Below are positions 30,771-50,597 of a stretch of 64,000 nt of DNA, one piece after another. Numbering within the stretch: position 1 is the stretch's first letter; each line of letters opens with the position of its first letter. Location: IMG/VR virus record IMGVR_UViG_3300035703_000067, positions 1-64,000 of that record, one strand, 5' to 3'. Below the pieces are notes generated by a model. That model had not been told where the DNA came from. It saw only the letters and a program-made list of their open reading frames with translations, and searched no databases. Made by a program: the position numbers and the translations under genes. The DNA is from a virus.

Positions 30771-32573
30771 GTGGCCTCTACTTCTACCGAAGCGTTCCGG
30801 AATGATGGGGCCTTAGTAAATATATTGTCCGGAATGGGTGTATCCACCAAGGACAAGACTGTAGCAACCATAGTAGGTGCAAAACCAATACTAACTGAAG
30901 GCGAACTCGAAGCTCTATACGCACATGGAATACCCAGACGCTACGTCGACTCCATCTCCGACGAGATCCTGCGCCACCAGACCACGATCACGCTGGGCGG
31001 CGACGACGAGGAAAACGCCAACGACCTGATCGCATCGTTCGAGGAATTCCTGAAGGCCACGCAATTCCACCACGCCTTCTCCGAGGTCGTGAAGCTGCAG
31101 CGCCTCTACGGCGGCGCCGGCCTGGTGCTCCTCATCGATGACGGCCTCCCGCCCGAAGAGCCCGTCGACATCAATCGCATCCGCTCGATCCAGGGCTATG
31201 TGCCCCTGTCGCGGCACGAGCTAATCCCCGAGGACTTCACGATCACCGACTACACCAAGCCCTCGCACTACCGGATCACGACAGCGCAGCGTCTGACCCC
31301 TGAGCAACAGGGGCAGTACGTCAACGTGCGGATCCATTCCTCGAGGGTGGCGCGCTTCGACGGGCTCTACCTGCCTTGGAACGTGCGCGTGCGCAACACC
31401 GGCTGGGGCCTTCCGGTACTCCAACTCGTCTGGGAGGCATACAAGCGCTACGAGAGCGCCATGTCGGGCCTGGAGTCGATGACGACTGACTCCGACCTGT
31501 TTGTCCACAAGATCCCAGGCCTGTTCAACCGCATCGCCACCGGCAACGAGAGCGACCTGCGCAAGCGACTGGAGGCCAACAACCTTTCACGCAGCGTCTA
31601 TGGCGGCATGGTCGTGGACGTGGAGGAGGAGCTGCAGTTCCTCAACCGCGCCCTGAGCAACATCGCCTCCGCGACCGAGCCCTTCATCAAGGATCTCCAA
31701 GCAGCGACGGGTTGGCCCGCCTCGATCCTGATGGGCGACTCCCCCGGTGGCCTGGGCAAGGAAGGCCGCTTCGAGGAGCGCGTCTGGGCCTCGATTGTCG
31801 AGCAATGGCAAGAGGTCTATTGCCGCACGGCGGTGACCGAGGTGTTCCGGTACATCCTCGTCTCGCGCGAAGGCCCAGCCCGAGGACGGCCCCCTGAAAA
31901 GTGGAGCGTCGAATTCCCGAGCGTCTTCACGGAGACAGACAGCGAAAAAGCAGCGTTGCGACTGCAGGTAGCACAAGTTGATGCTCAGTACATCAATCTG
32001 GGCGTACTAAATGCATTAGAGGTACGTGAGGCAAGGTTTGGAGGAACCGAATATAGCATAGAAACAACATTAGATCCTAATGTCTCAAGCATGCTGACTG
32101 AACAAACCAACATGCAGTTCGAGACACAAATGATAGGTATGCAAGCACAGAATGAAGCAGTTCAGAACCCACAAGAGGAGGAAGAACAACAACCAGAAGA
32201 AGAGACTGAAGAGGAAGCTAAAACAGACTCTATCGACTATATAAATGCCCACGGCTACCGTATAGCAGTCGTAGCGCGCCTGGGCGATGTGAGCAAAGGA
32301 GTTTTAATAGCACCCGATGGACAAAGAGTAGACTCTAAACGTGCCTCAGTATTCGTAGTAGGTCCACAAAGAGCGTACGGACGTAAGTTGTACAAGACCA
32401 GATTCGACGTACAGGGCGAACTTGTTGAAGGTCCGTATGCCATAGGCTTCCGCACGATCAAAGCAGCGAAGCAAGCAATCGCTTCTTTCTATCCTCGGCA
32501 GAATGTGGCAGGGCTATCCCCCGTATCCGAGGGCGAGGCCGAAGCCCTTCGCGCCGGTTGGGAGCAGTACTGA
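30771..32573 (+). CDS. Portal protein (DUF1073 / phage_portal_3 type)
   Basis: 600 residues from GTG 30771. The portal body matches DUF1073: RRYVDSISDEILR, LQRLYGGAGLVLLID, FNRIATGNESDLRKRLE, LQAATGWPASILMGDSPGGLGKEG, EERVWASIVEQWQE. An acidic linker (residues 470-485) leads to a separate C-terminal beta-rich domain (YINAHGYRIAVVARLGDVSKG). Only the middle part (about 30945-31930) is GC-rich. Both ends are AT-rich, so the ends seem to derive from recombination. TGATG couples it to the next gene. Confidence 0.88.
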   Translation: MASTSTEAFRNDGALVNILSGMGVSTKDKTVATIVGAKPILTEGELEALYAHGIPRRYVDSISDEILRHQTTITLGGDDEENANDLIASFEEFLKATQFHHAFSEVVKLQRLYGGAGLVLLIDDGLPPEEPVDINRIRSIQGYVPLSRHELIPEDFTITDYTKPSHYRITTAQRLTPEQQGQYVNVRIHSSRVARFDGLYLPWNVRVRNTGWGLPVLQLVWEAYKRYESAMSGLESMTTDSDLFVHKIPGLFNRIATGNESDLRKRLEANNLSRSVYGGMVVDVEEELQFLNRALSNIASATEPFIKDLQAATGWPASILMGDSPGGLGKEGRFEERVWASIVEQWQEVYCRTAVTEVFRYILVSREGPARGRPPEKWSVEFPSVFTETDSEKAALRLQVAQVDAQYINLGVLNALEVREARFGGTEYSIETTLDPNVSSMLTEQTNMQFETQMIGMQAQNEAVQNPQEEEEQQPEEETEEEAKTDSIDYINAHGYRIAVVARLGDVSKGVLIAPDGQRVDSKRASVFVVGPQRAYGRKLYKTRFDVQGELVEGPYAIGFRTIKAAKQAIASFYPRQNVAGLSPVSEGEAEALRAGWEQY

Positions 32574-35365
32574 TGAGCGAGCAACGCCCTACGACCCCGG
32601 AAGCCGCACGAGCTGCTGCTTATCTTGCGGCGAAAGAGCGCCTTGATCTCAAAGGCAAAGTCAAATGCAATCCCCCTAATAGAGCGTGCGGGGACCGTTG
32701 CATTCCTCCCAACTGGAAGTGCCGCGTAAAGGGAGAAGGGACAGACTCCCATTCACGAGTCATCGCTGGGGACCCTTTAGCAGGGGCGGCTTCGATTGCC
32801 CGAGGCCGAAAGCGCTTGGCAAAAGGACTCAGAAAGGGAAGAGTTGAAGAAATTCAAGCAGGTCGAGCTGCTATTGCCAGGGGCATTGTAAAAGCAGTTC
32901 CAGGTAAAAACATCAAGCAAAAACAAGAGCTAAGAAAAACAGTAGAAACAGTTATTCTCCCTGTTGCTACTGGCTTATTCGCTGCTTGGGCACTACGGCA
33001 AGGACACGAAGCAGCCAAACTTCTATTCCCGGCCTATGCACAAGGACCAGGCAAGGACATCGAGAACGCCGCAGGCACAACTGTAGGATTCGTTCTCGAC
33101 AGGATCCCCATCTACGGGGAAAAAAGAAGACTGGAAAGGAAGATTGGCAATCAAAGAGCAAATATGCTCGCAAATGCCGCTACTTTCGGAGCAAATAATG
33201 CAGCCCCTTCTGTACCTAGTGCGGACAACACATATTTTAGCAAACTCTCTAGATCGGTAAGTGGAGCCAGCAAAGCAGTCAACGAAGGTCTAACCGCTGT
33301 TCATCCGGAAAAAGGAATTAAACCATACGATACTTTTAGGTCTGATCTTTTAAGTGGTGTATTGGGGGCCACAATAAAAGGAAAGGGTGCGGATGGCTCG
33401 GATCGAGTAAGCGCCTACGCAGAACCAGCCACAATAAGGTTTATGTCTAAGCAGTTTGGTCTCGACCCTGCGACTCTAAAAGGTGGAGCGTACGGAGAAC
33501 AACAAAAGAACTGGCTCATAGATGGCGTAGCACAGCAACTACAAAAGGGAAGAGAACAGCTGCGTGCTGACATGGCCGTTAGAGGACTAAGCTATAAAAA
33601 ACCCGAAGACGTAGAAAAGTACGTAGACATCGCAGTGGACAATGCTAGAACAACTCTAGGTAAAGCTCAAAAAGGTAAAAGCGAAGAGGCAGTAGCCGAC
33701 TACAGGAGCATGGTTCGCTCTCTCATTAAAGGAGGCGAGGCTCAGAGTACGAAGGCGTTAGCAGATGAAATGTACGTAAAAACATTCAACGGATTTGATA
33801 ATTACTTCAAAACCGCAGCCGAGCGCGTCAAAGACGACACTGACGCACGTCGACAAGTCGGAGCGGCCGCCTCAAGGACTTCTCCAGTGAAAGATACTCT
33901 TATCGGTGTAGCAGAGCGTATTAAAACAAAAGTAGGCATGAATTCACCTATTGCTGGGGCTAATCATGCCGAACTGGTCATACTTAAGGTATACCATGAG
34001 TATTCACTAACTAGCAAAAAGAAATTTGCTAGAGATATTAACGGCAATAACACATGGACAGCTTCCGACTCAACCATTAGGTACGCCGCCCAAGATCTTG
34101 GCTGGGATGGCTCTGGTGGGACCGAGGGCGCTTACAAGCACTTACGCGCTACTGGGCAATTCGCCAGGCTGGCGTGGGGGAACGTATCCACAGCCCCTGC
34201 TAGACCGCGTAGCCAGAATAAGCAGCAACGCCTTGGAGATCTAATTCGTAGTGTAAGGAAAAGAAAAGGAAACGAGAACCTCTCGATGGAGCAGATTATT
34301 GCTATAGCAAAGCAAGAGCTCAATAGAGATGATAGCGACGATATGCCTGTCCGGGTGAAAGCATACCTCGAGATGCGATTGAGGCAAGACAAGAAGTGCG
34401 GAGCCTCCTACATCTCAGACAATAAAAAGTGCACAAAAGCAAATAAAGGACCCAACTCTAAAGACGACACCGAAGTATTTACCAAGACTCTGGTCGCAAG
34501 CACCGCTTTAGTGGGCGGAGTAGCCGTGACCGCAACCGTAGCAAGCAGTATCGATGATGTAGTTAAAGAGCGGTCTAGGCAGTTCGGAGAACCTACTCTC
34601 TCAACGTTCACGGGAAAGATAGGGAATCCAGATATTTACAGAAAAAGTGTTATTCGTACTCTCTCATCAGGTCATTTTGGCGACACTGCCCTCAGTGAAG
34701 TAAATAACGCAATGTACGTTGTAAAAACTCCTAAGCAGTCCCCCAAGAGTGCGCGCGTTGCAGCAGGGGCCGGCTTGGACAGTAAAGCGCGGCGCAACTT
34801 GTATCGATCACAAGGGCGCATAACCAGAAGTGAAGTTGTGAATAACACAATCGCAGGTGATATTGGAGTCGCCCCTAAAGTCGTTGCAGCAAATCGCAAC
34901 ACCCTAGTTACAGAACACGTAAAAGGGCAACCTCTGCGGAAACTAGACGATAAATCCCTGGTAGCCCTAAATGAGTCTTTGGGTAAGCTACATAGAGCGG
35001 GAATTGCCCATAACGATCTGAAACCCGCTAATATCTTTATGAATGACAAAGGGAAGGCTGTCTTAATCGATTTCGGCCTCTCGTCCAATTCGCCCGGGGC
35101 TGTAGCCGGAGAGTGGTATAGAGCAATGAACAGTCGTAGCTCTAACCCACTTATAGGTATTACCAAGACTGCGACCGGTAGTCTGAATCTAAAGCGTCTA
35201 AACCCCGAAGGATACAAAAGTGCAGAAAAAGCATTATCAGCCGTAATAGGCGGAAAGGTAAGTGAATCACGTCTGACGCAGGCTGCAAAAGACGCAAAAA
35301 AAGCTCGTCAGATACAGCTAGTCATAAATAACTACTACGCAGGTAAGTACAATCAGAACAAATGA
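32573..35365 (+). CDS. Large head-module protein with two cysteine headers and a protein kinase-like domain
   Basis: 930 residues from ATG 32573. Header A (ACGDRCIPPNWKC, residues 38-50) is followed by a hydrophobic helix at 124-143. Header B (KKCGASYISDNKKC, 607-620) is followed by a hydrophobic helix at about 634-658. The C-terminal domain is kinase-like: possible lysine MYVVK (K718), catalytic loop HNDLKPANIF (D815, K817, N820) and LIDFG (D833). The middle is helical and unassigned. It lies between portal and MuF genes, where capsid-internal proteins are encoded, so I infer virion packaging and delivery. Mostly AT-rich; overlaps the next gene by ATGA. Confidence 0.75.
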   Translation: MSEQRPTTPEAARAAAYLAAKERLDLKGKVKCNPPNRACGDRCIPPNWKCRVKGEGTDSHSRVIAGDPLAGAASIARGRKRLAKGLRKGRVEEIQAGRAAIARGIVKAVPGKNIKQKQELRKTVETVILPVATGLFAAWALRQGHEAAKLLFPAYAQGPGKDIENAAGTTVGFVLDRIPIYGEKRRLERKIGNQRANMLANAATFGANNAAPSVPSADNTYFSKLSRSVSGASKAVNEGLTAVHPEKGIKPYDTFRSDLLSGVLGATIKGKGADGSDRVSAYAEPATIRFMSKQFGLDPATLKGGAYGEQQKNWLIDGVAQQLQKGREQLRADMAVRGLSYKKPEDVEKYVDIAVDNARTTLGKAQKGKSEEAVADYRSMVRSLIKGGEAQSTKALADEMYVKTFNGFDNYFKTAAERVKDDTDARRQVGAAASRTSPVKDTLIGVAERIKTKVGMNSPIAGANHAELVILKVYHEYSLTSKKKFARDINGNNTWTASDSTIRYAAQDLGWDGSGGTEGAYKHLRATGQFARLAWGNVSTAPARPRSQNKQQRLGDLIRSVRKRKGNENLSMEQIIAIAKQELNRDDSDDMPVRVKAYLEMRLRQDKKCGASYISDNKKCTKANKGPNSKDDTEVFTKTLVASTALVGGVAVTATVASSIDDVVKERSRQFGEPTLSTFTGKIGNPDIYRKSVIRTLSSGHFGDTALSEVNNAMYVVKTPKQSPKSARVAAGAGLDSKARRNLYRSQGRITRSEVVNNTIAGDIGVAPKVVAANRNTLVTEHVKGQPLRKLDDKSLVALNESLGKLHRAGIAHNDLKPANIFMNDKGKAVLIDFGLSSNSPGAVAGEWYRAMNSRSSNPLIGITKTATGSLNLKRLNPEGYKSAEKALSAVIGGKVSESRLTQAAKDAKKARQIQLVINNYYAGKYNQNK

Positions 35366-36249
35366 CTATTCCTATCGTAGAGAGGTATAACAAGATATTA
35401 TCTACCACGGAGTCGGAAACAATAAGTGTGCTCGACCGGGTCCTCGACCAGAGCTTCAACCGCCTAGTGCGCCGAGCTCGGGTCCATATGCGGATTGGTC
35501 TTATCGACCCAGTCCAGCGCAACCTCGCTCTGCTTCAAGAATTCAGACAGCTCGTCCCTTCTTTCCGCCCAGATCGCGTCGATGCCTACGACAAGGTGCT
35601 TCAAGGCTTAATAGGACAAGCAAGCACACGGGGCATCGAGGTTGCGGACAATCTCACCCAACGCATGGCGCCCGAGCGTCCTCGGGTGGATGTCTCCATT
35701 CCCCTCGAGGCGACCGTGGCCGCAGCGGCACAAGCCAAGGGCTATTTGCGCAAGCATGGTGAACGCTTTGCCACCACCTCAGCCGAGGTCGTAGCCCAAG
35801 GCATCGCCGAAGGTCGCCCCACCGACAGCATGGTCCGCGACATGCGCTCCCGGCTCAGTGTGGTGAAGTCGCGCGCCGAGATGATCGTCCGCACAGAGTC
35901 GCTACGTGCCTACAACGAGGCGTCCAATACGTACTACGCCGCGCAAGGCGTGGAACTTTGTATGTGGTACGCCACCGCTGATGATCGCGCGTGCTCCATC
36001 TGCGCCCCTCGCGCCGGGCAGATCTACAAGCGCTCCGAGATCAAGGCACCATGCCACCCCCGGTGCCGGTGCTACCTCGCTCCCTGGGATCCCGAGATCG
36101 CAGCGATGGACCCCGAGTACGCCGGCCAACGTCAACGACACGCTGACGAAATACGCAAAGCGTATAAACAGCTCTCCAAAGAGCCTGCCAACTTGAATCG
36201 CGCAGCAGTCTTTGAGCAACTGGCGCCCACACCGGTTGCAACGCCGTAA
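35362..36249 (+). CDS. Minor head protein, MuF / SPP1 gp7 type
   Basis: 295 residues. The C-terminal MuF signature is clear: AEMIVRTESLRAYNEA, MWYATADDRACSICAPRAGQIY and CHPRCRCYLAPWD. MuF proteins bind the portal inside the head and are ejected with DNA; in some phages they are fused to toxins. Here no toxin is fused. Instead, separate effector-like genes lie directly on both sides, which supports a shared head-delivery role. Confidence 0.9.
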   Translation: MTIPIVERYNKILSTTESETISVLDRVLDQSFNRLVRRARVHMRIGLIDPVQRNLALLQEFRQLVPSFRPDRVDAYDKVLQGLIGQASTRGIEVADNLTQRMAPERPRVDVSIPLEATVAAAAQAKGYLRKHGERFATTSAEVVAQGIAEGRPTDSMVRDMRSRLSVVKSRAEMIVRTESLRAYNEASNTYYAAQGVELCMWYATADDRACSICAPRAGQIYKRSEIKAPCHPRCRCYLAPWDPEIAAMDPEYAGQRQRHADEIRKAYKQLSKEPANLNRAAVFEQLAPTPVATP

Positions 36250-37776: not shown

Positions 37777-39552
37777 ATGACAAGTCTGACACCATCGTCT
37801 CTGCGCATTGATAAGAAATGCGGCAAGTCCGGCATTGCGGATAATAAGAAGTGCACCAAACAGACAACACCACAAACTCCGGGCAACGAAGAGAAGAGCG
37901 GGGGTGGAGGCCCCAGCACCGCACTTCTTCTATCGGCCGGAGGTGTTGTTGCTACCGGGGTCGTTCTTGGAGTTATAGCTAAAGATATTTACGGAAGCGG
38001 TGTACCAAAAGAAAAAGTACCTCCCAAGGTCCCGCCTCCAGGTCTTTATGACACATTCAAACCTGGAGATCTGATTTATCAGACCGATGAATTCGCCGGT
38101 GCAAATAGGGCACACTACGCCGTCTACGTAGGCAAAGTAGACGGTGAGCATAGGGTGTTTGACACCTCTGCGCAGACGATTAAAGGTAAGCAGACGTCCA
38201 AGATGCAACTGCGCACCATTAAGGAAGCTACGGGGACCGGCACCTCTTTCGCTCTCGCATCCCGCGTAGACGAAAAAAGGCGTCGTCCGACATCTCAAGA
38301 ACTCGAGAAGATCATTAAGCGTCTCAATGGCAAGTCATTCGACTGGACGGGCTTTGAGGACAACTGTGAAACACTAGCCCGCAGCATTGTGAACGATCTA
38401 CCAGTATCGACTCAATCCAAGAACGTATCCGGCATGACCAACTTCTTGGCGAAAACAATGATTTCGGCTATGGCCCCAAAAGGTTACAGAAAACGTGCAG
38501 TAAAGCAAAAGAACATCAATAACTTGGTCGCTCGCACCTTGGGGGACAGCATGTCCATTACGCCTTCTTCTCTCAAGATCCGCGCCGACAAGAAGTGCGG
38601 GAACAGCGGAATCCCCGAGAACGCCAAATGCCACAAAGGTGGTGGAGGATCGTTCAACGCCGGACTCCTTGCCACTGGCCTTGTCGCGGGAGGTATCACC
38701 GCTTACGCCCTGACTCGAGGCGGGGGAAAAGCTACATCTGCATCAACAGAGTCTCCCACTAAGCCGCGCCCCAGCCTTCCGGGTGTAACCCCCAAAGCAT
38801 TGCTGGCGCCAGCGCCTCCACGTAAATCAAAGACGCAACGTATGCGTGAGAACACGCAGACCGCCATGCGCGAAGCCGAGGGCGCCATTGCACAAACCGC
38901 GCGCGAAGAAGTGCGACGTGTGGGGCAGATCGGCAACACCATGGCCAAAGCCGGTGAAGCTACCGGCATGGCAGCCAAGACCACATTCCGTGAGCTTCGC
39001 CTGCGCACCGAAGCCGCGCGGCGTCGCTACGAACCCGGTTACAGGCGCCCTGATCAACGCAGGCTCCCAGGCGGGGTCGGATCAGGTCTCCCACGTCAAG
39101 AACGAACTCGCTCCCTCGAGGAACTTGGGCAGATGAGCACAGAAGAGCTCCGTACGTGGATGACCGATCCCCGCACAGGGCAACCTCGCCGTCGTAAACC
39201 TCAAGGCTTCGGGCGCCGCGACAACTACATCCAGTACTACGCCCCTACGCAACTCCAACCCCCCACCCGCCGCGACGCCGAGGACGGCAAGAAATACACC
39301 AAAACCGTCACCAACCCTGAAACCGGGCGCAAAAACAAGGTCCGCTACGGCGCTAAGGGCTACAAGATCGCCCCCGGCACTAACAAGGGCGACCGCTACT
39401 GCGCCCGGAGCTTCGGCGACATGAAGTCCGAGGGCTACGACTGCTCCGGTGCCGAGCGCAACACACCCTTGTGCCTCTCGAGGGCGAAGTGGAAGTGCTC
39501 AGGCAAGACCTCACGCCGCGATGGGCTCACGCCGGGAAAGTCCTCGGCCTAG
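37777..39552 (+). CDS. Tagged two-module protein with NC/LRAT-like domain and DUF6321-like end
   Basis: 591 residues. Header E (KKCGKSGIADNKKC, 13-26) and a hydrophobic helix at 47-70 precede an NC/LRAT-like papain-type domain: YDTFKPGDLIYQTDE, AHYAVYVG (H113), DNCETLARSIVND (C197). A second header F (KKCGNSGIPENAKC, 272-285) follows a fresh MSITPSSL start at 38551 and has its own hydrophobic helix. The end KVRYGAKGYKIAPGTNKGD, RYCARSFG and LSRAKWKCSGK resembles a cyanophage domain I know as DUF6321. GGGAAAG 12 bases before the stop could shift into the next gene. Confidence 0.72.
   Translation: MTSLTPSSLRIDKKCGKSGIADNKKCTKQTTPQTPGNEEKSGGGGPSTALLLSAGGVVATGVVLGVIAKDIYGSGVPKEKVPPKVPPPGLYDTFKPGDLIYQTDEFAGANRAHYAVYVGKVDGEHRVFDTSAQTIKGKQTSKMQLRTIKEATGTGTSFALASRVDEKRRRPTSQELEKIIKRLNGKSFDWTGFEDNCETLARSIVNDLPVSTQSKNVSGMTNFLAKTMISAMAPKGYRKRAVKQKNINNLVARTLGDSMSITPSSLKIRADKKCGNSGIPENAKCHKGGGGSFNAGLLATGLVAGGITAYALTRGGGKATSASTESPTKPRPSLPGVTPKALLAPAPPRKSKTQRMRENTQTAMREAEGAIAQTAREEVRRVGQIGNTMAKAGEATGMAAKTTFRELRLRTEAARRRYEPGYRRPDQRRLPGGVGSGLPRQERTRSLEELGQMSTEELRTWMTDPRTGQPRRRKPQGFGRRDNYIQYYAPTQLQPPTRRDAEDGKKYTKTVTNPETGRKNKVRYGAKGYKIAPGTNKGDRYCARSFGDMKSEGYDCSGAERNTPLCLSRAKWKCSGKTSRRDGLTPGKSSA
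38551..38631 (+). other. Internal second start and header F inside the NC-domain gene
   Basis: MSITPSSLKIRADKKCG at 38551 repeats the start pattern of this gene (MTSLTPSSLRIDKKCG) and of the previous one (MALTPKSVRLDKKCG). GGGGGA lies seven bases before the ATG. Either the gene is a fusion of two former genes, or a shorter second product is made from here. Confidence 0.5.
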
Positions 39553-41819
39553 TAAGGAGCGACGCCCCCGAGCGCGCTAAGGGCAAGCCCTGTGGACAGT
39601 CACATATACCAAAACAGCATAATTGCTCGAAAGATTCTAGTAAAGGTGTCAATCAAGTAGAGAGTAATCAGCGCAATCTCGCTAAGTGGGCCGCCGTCGG
39701 CATAAGTGCTGCGGCAGTTGGTGGAATCGCCGCTGTTTTGTATAGCCAAAACAGTTCAAAACAACAGATATTACGTGAGTTAAAGCTAAAACAGACTAAT
39801 GCGCGCGCCGCTCTTTTGTATAGTCAAAACAGTTCAAAACAACAGATATTACGTGAGTTAAAGCTAAAACAGACTAATGCGCGGCTTCGTCGTGCTGAAG
39901 AGCACGCCGCTATATACGATTATGTTTCTGCAAGTTATGGGCTGAACCGCGCACTTAGAAGTGGAGAACAGCTGGACGAACGCTATCAAGTCATAAAAGA
40001 CGGACTAGACAGTTGGCTTAATAAGTCGTCTGGGGATAAAGGAATTTACTACAGAGGAATTGCATGGAATGCAAGTACCGAGTGGAGGACTGCTACAGCA
40101 GGTCAAACAATAACTGACAAAGCATTCGGCAGCTTTTCTAGTAGTAGAGCAATGGGTATAAAGTATGGTGAAGGCAAAGATAATAAATCGGGAGTAGTCA
40201 TTGTCGCTCGCGGATCTCTTGCCAAGCTGCCGTACCACGTTAAAGGAAGATACGGTCAGTCAATGGGAGAGAAGCTTCGTGCCGAAAGAGAATTCCTAGC
40301 AAGGCGCAACACGCAATTCAAAGTATTGCGCACTCAAGACGTTACTTTGCGCTACAGCAGGAAAAAAGGAGTAGACGAGCTTGTTCGTGATCCTAACGGT
40401 GACATTATCAAAAAACAACGAATCGTTTATGTAGATATACTCGATCCTCGGCGCTCCGACGCATACTTTGCGCGCGCTCAGGGCAAGCCCTGCGGTGAAT
40501 CTCACATCCCAAAGCAGCATAAGTGCAGCAAGAATTCGAGGATCTCTAATAGCAACAATTTACAAACCGCAGCTAAAGTAGCTCTTGCCGCAGGCGTCAT
40601 AGCAGGAGGTGCCTACTTGATCAAAAGCAGATACATCTCACCTAAAGACTGGGAGAAACACCCAGCCAATAGGCTGAACAACCCCAAGATGACCGAGGAC
40701 GAGGCGCAGCGCATCGCCGACGAGGCCATCGCCGGGGGCCAGAAGTGGGACGTCCAGGAAAAGATCAATGCTCGCCGCCGAGCCGAGCGCGCCACCGAGT
40801 GCGGAGGTGGCCTGGGAAAGATCCAAGCCCCGGCGAAGTTTGACGCACAGATCGTCGATCCTCAGTGTCAAGCAGGCTTCGGGGCATTTGGTACTTACTA
40901 TGTACACTCATCTGAAAAGTATGGAATAAAGGTTTTTCAGAGTGGAGCAGACGACGACGTTAAAGCTGAATTTAGACGCCTGGATAAAGCGGACTATGCA
41001 GGAGTAAATGTTCCAGCTCCCATTCGCATAAACAAAGTCAAAGACCAATACGGAGATGTAAAAGCTCAGACTCTAGTCATGTCTCATATGAAAGAGTACA
41101 AGACTATTAGCGCTGTACACCATGACGCATACGCCAGAGCAGCGAATGCCCCGCTAATTGTCCAAACAAAGATAGCTCGTGAATTCCGCAAGCTACATAC
41201 AGCAGGTCTTGCACATGGGGATATCCACTCAGGCAACGTAATGGTACATCCGCGAAGCCAACGAGTGGCGTTAGTCGATTTTGGCTACGCGACTGAATTA
41301 CACGATGGAAGGCAGCCCTCGCACTACCGCAATGGTGTGCAGAACCTCCTCTACGACATGAATCGACTACCCGAGTTCCTCGGATTCGACAACAGAGGCG
41401 CTGATTTCTTAAACCGGTACAAAGGTACGCTAGAAAACGTAGAGAAACAAGCCAAAGAGCTTGCCAAGTTCGGCGGCCCCGATAACGAACAACGGTTTAC
41501 CATCGCTGTGAAGCGCTACCACGACGCCCTCGAGCGTGAACTGCTCTGGGACGACCGTATGCCACGTTCTCGTTTTGTTAGCGGCGCCGAACAGCCACGC
41601 ATCCCTGGCCTGACACGCCGCATCCTTACTGCCAACGCCAACACACGGCAGCGCCAGTTGATGGAAGGGCTGCACAACGGCAATCTGACGTTGTTCCAGG
41701 ACGGAGCCAAGAACCTGGGCGTTAAGCCCGCGCGTCTGTTCGTAGCCCTCAAACCCGAGCGTGATGCTCGCCAAGCCCGTCAACGCCAACGGCCCTTCGG
41801 CACTCCCTTGGTCCCATGA
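39471..41819 (+). CDS. ADP-ribosyltransferase plus protein kinase-like protein with headers G and H
   Basis: Numbered from GTG 39471, which lacks a ribosome-binding site; a -1 frameshift from the previous gene may be the real entry. Header G (GKPCGQSHIPKQHNC, 38-52) and hydrophobic helix are followed by a 26-residue tandem repeat, then an R-S-E class ADP-ribosyltransferase: YYRGI (R195), SFSSS (S223-S225), EREFLARRNTQFKV (E272, E274). Header H (338-352) and another helix precede a complete kinase-like domain: GAFGTYY loop, GIKVF (K487), HGDIHSGN (D584, N588), VDFG (D603). Both enzymes look intact. Codon use is mosaic. Confidence 0.75.
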   Translation: MPLEGEVEVLRQDLTPRWAHAGKVLGLVRSDAPERAKGKPCGQSHIPKQHNCSKDSSKGVNQVESNQRNLAKWAAVGISAAAVGGIAAVLYSQNSSKQQILRELKLKQTNARAALLYSQNSSKQQILRELKLKQTNARLRRAEEHAAIYDYVSASYGLNRALRSGEQLDERYQVIKDGLDSWLNKSSGDKGIYYRGIAWNASTEWRTATAGQTITDKAFGSFSSSRAMGIKYGEGKDNKSGVVIVARGSLAKLPYHVKGRYGQSMGEKLRAEREFLARRNTQFKVLRTQDVTLRYSRKKGVDELVRDPNGDIIKKQRIVYVDILDPRRSDAYFARAQGKPCGESHIPKQHKCSKNSRISNSNNLQTAAKVALAAGVIAGGAYLIKSRYISPKDWEKHPANRLNNPKMTEDEAQRIADEAIAGGQKWDVQEKINARRRAERATECGGGLGKIQAPAKFDAQIVDPQCQAGFGAFGTYYVHSSEKYGIKVFQSGADDDVKAEFRRLDKADYAGVNVPAPIRINKVKDQYGDVKAQTLVMSHMKEYKTISAVHHDAYARAANAPLIVQTKIAREFRKLHTAGLAHGDIHSGNVMVHPRSQRVALVDFGYATELHDGRQPSHYRNGVQNLLYDMNRLPEFLGFDNRGADFLNRYKGTLENVEKQAKELAKFGGPDNEQRFTIAVKRYHDALERELLWDDRMPRSRFVSGAEQPRIPGLTRRILTANANTRQRQLMEGLHNGNLTLFQDGAKNLGVKPARLFVALKPERDARQARQRQRPFGTPLVP
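39534..39540 (+). promoter_or_regulatory. Putative -1 ribosomal frameshift site GGGAAAG
   Basis: The heptamer is in the correct register (G GGA AAG in the frame of the 37777 gene), 9 bases before the zero-frame TAG at 39550-39552. The -1 frame is open from here to 41819. A short stem CTCGG (39543-39547) / CCGAG (39568-39572) follows. Slippage would fuse 588 residues of the first protein to 759 of the second. GGGAAAG is the slippery sequence of phage lambda G/GT, and a GGGAAAC site in this window serves the tail chaperone genes. Confidence 0.6.
39732..39887 (+). repeat. 78-bp tandem duplication in the ADP-ribosyltransferase gene
   Basis: Two copies (39732-39809 and 39810-39887) that differ at three or four bases near the edges, encoding the 26-residue unit LYSQNSSKQQILRELKLKQ plus TNAR. 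The near identity means a recent event. It lengthens the stalk between the membrane helix and the enzyme domain. Confidence 0.85.
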
Positions 41820-42121
41820 CCTCCCTTCGCCTCGACGGTCGCTCCACCGAGTACTACCGCACGCATCCCGAGGCCGCTGCAAAGAAAGTTCGCCACCAGG
41901 CCGAGATCAACCGGCGCCCCTCTGAGCGCAAGCGCCGCGCCGAGCTCAACCAAGAGCGCCGTCGTCGTGGCATCTACGGCAAAGGTGGCCCAGACATCTC
42001 CCATACCGAGGCCGGAAAAACCGTCCTCGAAGATCCCTCCATCAACCGCGCGCGCAACGGTCACGGCAAACAACCCCGCCTCAAGCGCGACTCGATCTGG
42101 GCCGAGGGCTTTGCCCCCTAA
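41816..42121 (+). CDS. Small basic head-module protein with C-terminal SIWAEGF tag
   Basis: 101 residues, overlapping the previous stop (ATGA). STEYYRTHPEAAAKKVRHQAEINRRPSERKRRAELNQERRRRG and DISHTEAGKTVLEDPSINRARNG belong to a small phage structural-type family of unknown role that I have seen next to capsid genes. It ends RDSIWAEGFAP, the third copy of the C-terminal tag. High positive charge fits binding to packaged DNA. Confidence 0.7.
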   Translation: MTSLRLDGRSTEYYRTHPEAAAKKVRHQAEINRRPSERKRRAELNQERRRRGIYGKGGPDISHTEAGKTVLEDPSINRARNGHGKQPRLKRDSIWAEGFAP

Positions 42122-49391: not shown

Positions 49392-49624
49392 TGCAGTGCG
49401 ATCTACTCACTGATTCTAACAAGTTAATCTACGCAATAAACTGCACAATCGAACGCGACTACGTTCACGTGGGTGCCCTGTACGCCGAGCCCGGGATTAC
49501 GGACTTCGCTATACGCTTATCGGATAGCGACGCTAATGTGCTGGTAGAGCTCCCAGTCGATCTGGTCCACCAGAGCGCCTCAACCCGAGCCTGGAACATC
49601 ACATTGCAACGAGCCACGCAATGA
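49391..49624 (+). CDS. Small tail-region protein
   Basis: 77 residues, beta-rich (KLIYAINCTIERDYVHVGALYAEPG), overlapping both neighbours (TAATG at the start, ATGA at the end). It marks the switch from GC-rich tube genes to the AT-rich chaperone and tape measure block. Function unknown. Confidence 0.6.
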   Translation: MQCDLLTDSNKLIYAINCTIERDYVHVGALYAEPGITDFAIRLSDSDANVLVELPVDLVHQSASTRAWNITLQRATQ

Positions 49625-50133
49625 GCAAATACGCATCACTTCTCTTCGGCCCTGAAAAGTACTACGAGGTCGGACCATTCCGCTTCCCGATTTACAAGGA
49701 TCTCGTGCCGGGGGAGTCCAGAGGTATAGAAAACATTTCCAGAAGTCAATCAAAGTACACATTTAAGTCGATTAAACTAGCACAGAAGATAGCAAAAGAT
49801 AAAAACATTACAACTAAAGAAGCTATTGACATGCTCGCCAACACGAGCGACGAAGACCAAACCACATTCTTTGACTACGCCAGCGAAATAGAAGAGCTGC
49901 AAGAAATTGCTATAAGCGCAACAAGCCAAAAAGTCATGTTAGTATCATTATTCATGAAGTACAGGGGTGAGGTCAAGCTGCCAAAATCAAAAGAATGGAC
50001 TAAAGTACCAGACTGGGCCGAAGAAGATACAGAGAATATCCCAGGAAAAGTACTAGATAAGATTGTGGAGTTTATTGAGTGGGAGCGGGAAGGTTGGCCC
50101 ACAACCGACGCTGAAGCGGGAAACGAGGAGTAG
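49621..50133 (+). CDS. Tail assembly chaperone, short form (lambda gpG analogue)
   Basis: 170 residues, helical and acidic, directly before the tape measure gene apart from a frameshifted extension. Clear GPEKYYEVGPFRFPIYK start. Its last codons contain GGGAAAC (50118-50124) in the right register for -1 slippage into the next frame. The short form and the fused form bind the tape measure protein during tail assembly. Confidence 0.8.
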   Translation: MSKYASLLFGPEKYYEVGPFRFPIYKDLVPGESRGIENISRSQSKYTFKSIKLAQKIAKDKNITTKEAIDMLANTSDEDQTTFFDYASEIEELQEIAISATSQKVMLVSLFMKYRGEVKLPKSKEWTKVPDWAEEDTENIPGKVLDKIVEFIEWEREGWPTTDAEAGNEE

Positions 50134-50597
50134 CAGACAAAGAGGTAGAGCTTTCACCTGAACAAAGTCTGCAGCAAGCGGAGAGCATACTCAAGGCAGG
50201 TCTAACGAATTGGGATGAGTTGTACGTCAGAATAAAGAGCTCACCTCTTGGTGCAGAGTATAATAGAGATTCATTTGTACGTACTCCCATAGGTGTGCTC
50301 AGAGAGTTGATGGAGCATATAAGCAGTGAGGAGCAACGCTGTGCGAACATAAATTCAATAACACAGGCTCACCTTGCTGTATTGGTAATAACTATTGCTC
50401 ACGGGCTTTCAGGGTCAAGGCGAAACCCACCGAAAGTCAAAGCAAACGAGTTTTTACCGTTCCCAGACTGGAGACCAAATGAAGAAGATAAACCACAGCT
50501 TGATCAGTTCACAAGACAGACACTTACTAAGCTAATTAAAGGAAGACGCATACCTATGCACGTATTCGTAGCGCTTCTATCCCTGCCCGAGGACTGA
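50115..50597 (+). CDS. Tail assembly chaperone extension (lambda gpT analogue), read by -1 frameshift
   Basis: Open -1 frame from 50115 to the TGA at 50595-50597. It has no ATG near its start; TTG 50220 is the first usual start and has no ribosome-binding site. Slippage at GGGAAAC would give 168 residues of the short form plus 157 of this frame (325 in all). Helical segments AEQ-like SLQQAESILKAGLTNWDEL and TQAHLAVLVITIAHGL fit the partner domain of tail chaperones. Confidence 0.8.
   Translation, partial: SGKRGVADKEVELSPEQSLQQAESILKAGLTNWDELYVRIKSSPLGAEYNRDSFVRTPIGVLRELMEHISSEEQRCANINSITQAHLAVLVITIAHGLSGSRRNPPKVKANEFLPFPDWRPNEEDKPQLDQFTRQTLTKLIKGRRIPMHVFVALLSLPED
50118..50124 (+). promoter_or_regulatory. 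-1 ribosomal frameshift site GGGAAAC
   Basis: G GGA AAC in the frame of the short chaperone, 6 bases before its TAG at 50131-50133. The layout (gene pair just before the tape measure, -1 frame open without its own start) is that of lambda G/GT and many siphoviruses. Confidence 0.85.

What the first reader, a model, noticed from the sequence alone, without database searches (positions are those of the whole stretch)
39471..39572. Likely -1 frameshift at GGGAAAG fuses the NC-domain protein to the ART-kinase protein
G GGA AAG is in register, 9 bases before the zero-frame stop. The -1 frame is open on both sides, and its only early start (GTG 39471) has no ribosome-binding site. The same window uses GGGAAAC for the tail chaperones. 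A fused product of about 1347 residues would carry headers E-H and three enzyme domains on one chain, with the ratio of forms set by slippage.
Basis: partly seen in the sequence, partly recalled or inferred. Interest (0 to 1): 0.75.

Follow-up and report, generated by a model that had tools for sequence, protein, structure and literature searches.

The report
Frameshift-joined enzyme cassette in cyanophage-like virus
At the end of one virus gene a conserved "slippery" seven-base word very probably makes some ribosomes slip back one base and add a second protein, carrying an ADP-ribosyltransferase and a kinase, to the first; the same joint recurs in about 30 related viruses whose second gene has different enzymes and often no start codon of its own.

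Summary
G GGA AAG (39534-39540) is in register with ORF1, 9 nt before its TAG; ORF2 lies in the -1 frame. One detail is wrong: two further in-frame GTGs exist (39489, 39495), the first behind GAGGG. Relatives overrule them. In 29 distinct junctions (window included) CCG GGA AAG is invariant, the zero-frame stop follows within 12 nt, and the -1 frame continues in the same linker; 12 of 29 have no ATG/GTG/TTG before the header. The stretch after the heptamer evolves as protein only in the -1 frame (dN/dS 0.24; other frames >1.5), and its first 16 codons show synonymous constraint. Three relatives nested among frameshift members became in-frame fusions at the same joint. A close relative (L070) lacks ORF2, with the break exactly at the heptamer. 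Downstream partners vary: kinase, ART, ART+kinase, a phrog_6437 protein. This is a swappable, mostly start-less enzyme cassette attached to a head-region protein by -1 frameshifting; it resembles frameshift-added Ig domains but carries enzymes. Slippage itself, its rate and virion packaging are untested.

The parts
37777..39552 (+). ORF1, zero-frame protein (591 aa): header + LRAT-type NC domain fused to a second header + conserved C-terminal domain; normal product ends ..LTPGKSSA*
38053..38415 (+). LRAT/NlpC-P60-type NC domain (AHYAVYVG .. DNCETLAR)
   Evidence: Alignment A6: invariant H29, N112, E114, and C113 in 9 of 10 (the tenth has X); all 10 members match PF04970 at E<=1, best 1.2e-10; PLAAT/HRASLS structures E 5e-9
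39277..39540 (+). Conserved C-terminal domain of ORF1 (RYGAKGYKIAPGTNKGDRYCARSFG..KWKCSGKTSRRDGLTPGK); also found in cultured cyanophages and Vibrio phages
39534..39540 (+). Slippery heptamer G GGA AAG; tandem slip to GGG AAA; also the exact 5' edge of the cassette missing in L070
39550..39552 (+). Zero-frame TAG, 9 nt after the heptamer (0, 3, 9 or 12 nt in relatives)
39540..39581 (+). -1 frame linker VLGLVRSDAPERAK: codons 3-16 counted from the heptamer, with strong synonymous constraint; candidate cis element
   Evidence: observed/expected synonymous diversity 0.32 in codons 3-16 against 0.82 in codons 17-35
39563..39576 (+). Possible small hairpin (CGCCC/GGGCG in most relatives, one mismatch in the window), 22 nt after the heptamer; no covariation support
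39540..41819 (+). ORF2 as read after slippage (759 aa + stop); no reliable start of its own
39582..39626 (+). Header G (GKPCGQSHIPKQHNC), 48 nt after the heptamer start
39471..39497 (+). Rival starts GTG 39471, 39489, 39495 in the -1 frame; GAGGG at 39480-39484
   Evidence: not kept in many relatives
39728..39878 (+). In-frame tandem duplication, offset 78 nt, between header G and the ART domain (39728-39800 matches 39806-39878)
39879..40469 (+). ADP-ribosyltransferase domain (R, SxS, ExE kept)
40482..40526 (+). Header H (GKPCGESHIPKQHKC) between ART and kinase
40881..41543 (+). Kinase domain (Kdo/WaaP, RIO/APH-like; HGDIHSGN, DFG), well modelled
39534..41813 (+). Whole cassette absent from relative L070, whose flanks are 93.5% (upstream 260 nt) and 98.9% (downstream 1887 nt) identical
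41816..42121 (+). Next gene (phrog_6437); its ATG overlaps the ORF2 stop (ATGA); in L037, L040, L081 this protein is itself the -1 frame partner
50118..50124 (+). GGGAAAC, probable tail-chaperone frameshift site of the same genome (internal comparison)

Best explanation
Most ribosomes translating ORF1 read G GGA AAG TCC TCG GCC TAG and stop. A fraction slip -1 on G_GGA_AAG (tRNA-Gly from GGA to GGG and tRNA-Lys from AAG to AAA), pass the stop in the -1 frame and make a 1347-residue protein: LRAT-type NC domain, conserved C-terminal domain, then header, ART, header, kinase. ORF2 is a cassette without a reliable start of its own; it carries the slippery heptamer at its very 5' edge and its stop overlaps the next ATG, so it can be swapped or lost between two neighbours while both keep being translated. 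Shown by comparison: conserved signal, -1 frame coding, lack of starts in many relatives, exchangeable partners, in-frame fusions at the same joint, an empty site. Inferred: actual slippage and its rate; a stimulatory RNA element (synonymous constraint seen, structure not resolved); and the role. From the position among head genes (portal, MuF-like, then maturation protease and major head protein) the header proteins are likely capsid-associated, and slippage would load a minority of copies with enzymes that enter the host with the DNA (my estimate for this last step about 0.5). The confidence given is for -1 frameshifting making the fusion.
For: Register and near stop. CCG GGA AAG invariant in 29 distinct junctions; where the header follows, it starts 48 nt after the heptamer start. 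No ATG/GTG/TTG between the upstream -1 stop and the header in 12 of 29. dN/dS 0.24 in the -1 frame against 1.5-1.7 in the other two for 26 aligned junctions; 0.23 (bootstrap 0.10-0.47) in the 12 start-less loci alone. Synonymous constraint in codons 3-16 (0.32 of expectation) against codons 17-35 (0.82), permutation p 0.00015, while those codons vary in amino acid. In-frame genomic fusions at the same joint in L005/L150, L153, L119 and L125; three of them lie at separate places in the kinase tree. Empty site L070 broken exactly at 39533/39534. Every ORF2-type kinase found is behind the heptamer or fused in frame; none has its own start directly before the header. The same genome has a GGGAAAC site at its probable tail chaperones. 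G_GGA_AAG is reported as highly shift-prone in E. coli (PMC5009743).
Against: No experiment or peptide. No conserved stimulatory structure with covariation; the candidate hairpin begins 22 nt after the heptamer, farther than usual. In the window itself GTG 39489 behind GAGGG could start ORF2 with the header intact. Relatives are uncultured metagenomic contigs and not independent of one another. L142 has only an 18-aa zero-frame leader before the heptamer, so fusion to the large ORF1 protein is not needed everywhere. L050, L054, L138 keep the heptamer with most of ORF2 deleted.
Confidence: 0.92

Rival explanations
1. ORF2 is an ordinary overlapping gene that starts at GTG 39489 (or 39495/39471) behind GAGGG and is translationally coupled to ORF1; the heptamer is incidental.
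For: GTG 39489 is in frame with GAGGG 4 nt upstream; several relatives (L006, L112, L132, L140 and others) have GTGs at similar places.
Against: The GTG comes from the zero-frame AAG TGG (Lys-Trp) codons, and the GAGGG is not kept (CGCGCTAA in L008). In 12 of 29 junctions no start remains between the nearest -1 stop and the header, yet the header stays under protein-level selection in the -1 frame there. It does not explain the invariant heptamer.
Confidence: 0.05
2. ORF2 is reached by re-initiation or a non-standard start just after the ORF1 stop, or by an internal ATG downstream of the header, with no frameshift.
For: TAAGGAGCGAC follows the stop in the window, an SD-like word; several relatives have an ATG about 180 nt after the stop.
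Against: The SD-like word is not conserved, no start-like codon is conserved in codons 3-16, the window has no ATG near there, and a downstream ATG would leave the strongly conserved header untranslated.
Confidence: 0.03
3. The frame change is a sequencing error or a broken gene.
For: L036 shows an upstream frame error of this kind and L090 a truncated ORF2.
Against: The same two-frame layout is kept in 29 distinct junctions, with 61-98% pairwise identity among the 26 aligned and purifying selection on the -1 frame; catalytic residues of ART and kinase are intact.
Confidence: 0.01
4. Frameshifting is real, but the enzymes act free in the infected cell and are not virion cargo; the headers serve something else, such as membrane attachment. 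(This rivals only the functional part of the best explanation.)
For: Headers are followed by hydrophobic stretches; phage kinases and ARTs can be intracellular takeover proteins (general knowledge). No virion data exist.
Against: The eight headers seen in the window lie between portal and maturation protease genes, the usual place of head proteins, and MuF-like head proteins fused to ART or other effectors are known (PMC5512222, PMC7302621).
Confidence: 0.4

Closest known systems
Lambda-type G / G-T tail assembly chaperone frameshift
   Same: -1 slip on a G_GGA_AAR type heptamer near the end of the first gene, short zero-frame tail, second part without a start of its own. G_GGA_AAG is described as shift-prone in E. 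coli (PMC5009743).
   Different: Not tail chaperones: the genes lie among head genes, the zero-frame partner is a header protein and the -1 part carries enzymes. The same genome keeps a separate chaperone-like site (GGGAAAC, 50118).
Frameshift-added Ig-like domains on phage capsid and other structural proteins (T3, A2 and others; reviewed in PMC5009743)
   Same: A C-terminal domain is added to a fraction of a structural protein by frameshifting, and the domain occurs on different proteins.
   Different: Here enzymes (ART, kinase, perhaps a metallopeptidase) and not Ig-like domains, and the joint with its heptamer is a conserved module of its own.
MuF-type phage polymorphic toxins and polyvalent proteins; MuF-VIP2 ART fusions of Microbacterium phages (PMC5576092, PMC5512222, PMC7302621)
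   Same: Swappable effector domains, including ART and kinases, on or near head-region phage proteins.
   Different: Those are in-frame genomic fusions. PRFect (PMC10885494) noted that VIP2-ART and MuF-like genes might use frameshifting in some genomes. The carrier here is not MuF; a separate MuF-like gene lies at 35362-36249.
Retroviral Gag-Pol frameshift
   Same: Frameshifting sets the ratio of a structural protein to its enzyme-bearing form, which loads enzymes into particles (PMC5009743).
   Different: Unrelated virus; particle packaging here is not shown.

Membership tests
-1 programmed ribosomal frameshifting (tandem slippage type) | X_XXY_YYZ heptamer in the zero-frame register close to the zero-frame stop | tested here: met
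-1 programmed ribosomal frameshifting (tandem slippage type) | -1 frame coding and under protein-level selection after the site | tested here: met
-1 programmed ribosomal frameshifting (tandem slippage type) | Signal conserved in relatives, with no alternative start in at least some | tested here: met
-1 programmed ribosomal frameshifting (tandem slippage type) | Downstream stem-loop/pseudoknot or upstream SD-like stimulator (common, not obligatory) | tested here: inconclusive
   Synonymous constraint present, but no covarying structure; no SD-like word kept upstream
-1 programmed ribosomal frameshifting (tandem slippage type) | Transframe protein detected | not testable with these tools
   Needs reporter or mass spectrometry
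Lambda G/GT tail chaperone pair | Located just before the tape-measure gene | tested here: not met
   Site lies between MuF-like and maturation protease genes; the chaperone-like pair is at 49621-50597
MuF polymorphic toxin | MuF domain in the carrier protein | tested here: not met
   No MuF match in ORF1; MuF-like protein is 35362-36249
Frameshift-added Ig-like domain | Ig-like fold in the added part | tested here: not met
   Added part matches ART and kinase families, no Ig-like family
ADP-ribosyltransferase (R-S-E class) | R, SxS and ExE residues | tested here: met
   Invariant R59, S85-F-S87, E136 and E138 in A7; relatives L112 and L146 pass the PF03496 cut-off
Protein-kinase-like fold | Catalytic loop HGDxxxxN and DFG | tested here: met
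   HGDIHSGN, DFG; Pfam Kdo/APH/RIO1 above cut-off; Foldseek kinases
LRAT / NlpC-P60 superfamily | Conserved His and Cys (H..., NCE) | tested here: met

The most novel reading that the evidence does not exclude
The slippery heptamer is the leading edge of an exchangeable, start-less effector cassette: frameshifting is the device by which enzyme genes plug into a stop/start junction of the head operon, being translated as an optional extension of the upstream protein while both neighbours keep their expression, so that a set fraction of virion proteins carries a swappable payload.
Probability: 0.45. Interest if true: 0.75.

Novelty: new variant of a known kind. Interest (0 to 1): 0.62.

Why it matters
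Frameshifting in tailed phages is known mainly for tail chaperones and for optional Ig-like domains on structural proteins. Here a conserved frameshift joint attaches enzymes (ART, kinase and others), is kept while the payload changes, and has turned about three times into a plain in-frame fusion. That gives a natural test of what slippage is for (ratio control against constant fusion), and it means that gene callers can miss or misplace such effectors, because the second gene often has no start codon. If the products are virion cargo, slippage would set how many injected enzyme copies each particle carries.

Tried and rejected
Heptamer frequency alone: not above chance. Cultured phages: ORF2 has no relative in 50,697 phage records; only the ORF1 C-terminal domain is found, in S-TIM-type cyanophages, a Roseobacter phage and Vibrio phages. 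Bacterial and archaeal genomes: no relative of the joint, two distant ORF1-domain hits in MAG contigs. S-CBS4, closest by major head protein (54.9%), has no header motif on the inspected strand of its first 24 kb. RNAalifold and a hand-named hairpin gave no covariation. An early idea that CTCGG..CCGAG (with CTCAG..CTGAG in L004) was a covarying stimulator did not hold in the wider set. SD-like upstream stimulator: not kept. Structure model of ORF2: kinase good, ART part poor because few relatives carry it, so ART rests on sequence. A last pattern scan returned contigs almost all already known, so IMG/VR is close to exhausted for this joint. Transcriptional slippage was not pursued: the runs (GGG, AAA) are short for it (general knowledge).

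Full report
Observation. The heptamer GGGAAAG at 39534-39540 is in register with ORF1 as G|GGA|AAG, 9 nt before TAG 39550-39552; ORF2 is open in the -1 frame from before 39426 to 41819. The predicted slipped product has 588 + 759 = 1347 residues. The heptamer count in the window is at chance, so the case rests on register and comparison. The GGGAAAC tail-chaperone site (50118) is present as described: in register, -1 stop at 50112, no start until 50220.

Relatives. Searches with ORF2, then with the joint and with the ORF1 tail, brought about 35 IMG/VR contigs with this joint. After removal of duplicates there are 29 distinct out-of-frame junctions including the window, plus in-frame ones. All 29 read CCG GGA AAG; the zero-frame stop follows after 0, 3, 9 or 12 nt; the -1 frame reads GK(V/A)xxL(or P)xxxDA..., and where the KPCGxSxI header follows it begins exactly 48 nt after the heptamer start. 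Caveat: two of the five searches specified the heptamer and the tabulating script asked for it, but the protein-based searches did not, and every linker-type header they returned that was out of frame with the gene before it showed it. In 21 aligned ORF1 tails other synonymous codons vary. The frequencies of CCG, GGA and AAG within their amino acids are about 0.16-0.22, 0.20 and 0.52.

Starts. In 12 of 29 junctions there is no ATG, GTG or TTG between the upstream -1 stop and the header. A GTG seen in others comes from the zero-frame Lys-Trp codons. From the codon after the heptamer to the end of the header the -1 frame has dN/dS 0.24, the zero and +1 frames 1.5 and 1.7 (26 sequences); in the 12 start-less loci alone 0.23, bootstrap 0.10-0.47. 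So the -1 frame appears to be translated there although no ordinary start exists.

A cis element. Codons 3-16 keep 0.32 of the synonymous diversity expected from codon usage, codons 17-35 keep 0.82 (permutation p 0.00015, which treats codons as independent). Codons 7-16 lie beyond the zero-frame stop, and amino acids in this stretch do vary, so neither overlap nor simple homogenisation explains it well. A hairpin CGCCC-CCNA-GGGCG is possible in most sequences but shows no covariation and lies 22 nt after the heptamer. I leave the stimulator unresolved.

Fusions and empty site. L005/L150 carries one extra G at the heptamer and reads ..LTPGKVVGLARIDAPKGGKGKPCG.. in one frame; L153 is another in-frame joint; L119 and L125 read ..ALTPLTVLGLAHLDAPxPDKGKxCG.. 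without a heptamer; L069 is an in-frame fusion with a different joint. In the kinase tree L150, L153 and L119 sit at separate places among frameshift members (the placement of L119 is weakly supported). L070 matches the window upstream to 39533 (93.5% over 260 nt) and downstream from 41814 (98.9% over 1887 nt) and lacks everything between..CTCACGCC|ATGACC... So the cassette begins with the heptamer itself, within a two-base ambiguity, and its stop overlaps the next ATG. Whether L070 lost it or the window gained it cannot be told. L050, L054, L138 keep the heptamer but little of ORF2.

What is joined. Zero-frame side: in the window an LRAT-type NC domain fused to a header protein with a conserved C-terminal domain; relatives mostly have the latter alone. 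In L142 the zero-frame part is only an 18-residue leader. -1 side: ART + kinase (window), kinase alone (many), ART alone (L112, L146), another stretch + kinase (L004), RIO-like kinase (L155), a phrog_6437 protein with or without more (L037, L040, L081), and weak metallopeptidase similarity in L040. ART residues R, SxS, ExE and kinase HGDIHxGN/DFG are kept. The refutation search for an ORF2-type gene with its own start found none; the distant relative L009 has the header-kinase part inside a gene that begins with a phrog_6437-like stretch and its own ATG.

Setting. Gene order is terminase, portal, a header protein with a kinase, MuF-like protein, header proteins, ORF1, ORF2, phrog_6437, maturation protease, one small gene, major head protein, tail. 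The major head protein is nearest to Synechococcus phage S-CBS4 (54.9%), the terminase to cyanophages of filamentous hosts (33.6%). A cyanobacterial host is therefore likely but not shown.

Conclusion. A -1 programmed frameshift at this site is very likely. Its kind (frameshift-added optional domain) is known; the enzyme payload, its exchange behind a conserved joint, and the start-less cassette that begins at the slippery word were not found described in the papers searched, a limited open-access library.

Noticed in passing
window 32678, 34388, 36684, 37220, 37810, 38587, 39582, 40482: Eight copies of a cysteine header (CGxSxI....C and variants) tag genes between portal and maturation protease, several followed by a hydrophobic stretch; function unknown.
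   Followed up: partly
window 39728-39878: In-frame tandem duplication (offset 78 nt) in ORF2 just after header G, copies 97% identical, so recent.
   Followed up: no
L142 9264-9326: The zero-frame part before the heptamer is a leader of about 18 codons (VSLTPASLRRDGALTPGK*), so slippage here would serve expression and not fusion to a large protein.
   Followed up: partly
L050, L054, L138, L128: Remnants in which most of the cassette is deleted, some keeping the heptamer and a piece of the cassette's PFGTPL end in another frame.
   Followed up: partly
window 32558-35365: A second, longer header protein (935 aa) also ends in a kinase-like domain; its relatives are in-frame proteins with three headers.
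   Followed up: partly
L040 2056-3495: -1 frame product with weak similarity to peptidase M3 and ATLF domains near its end; possibly a metallopeptidase payload.
   Followed up: no
window 50118-50124: GGGAAAC in register at the end of 49621-50133 with the -1 frame open to 50597: likely tail-chaperone frameshift.
   Followed up: yes
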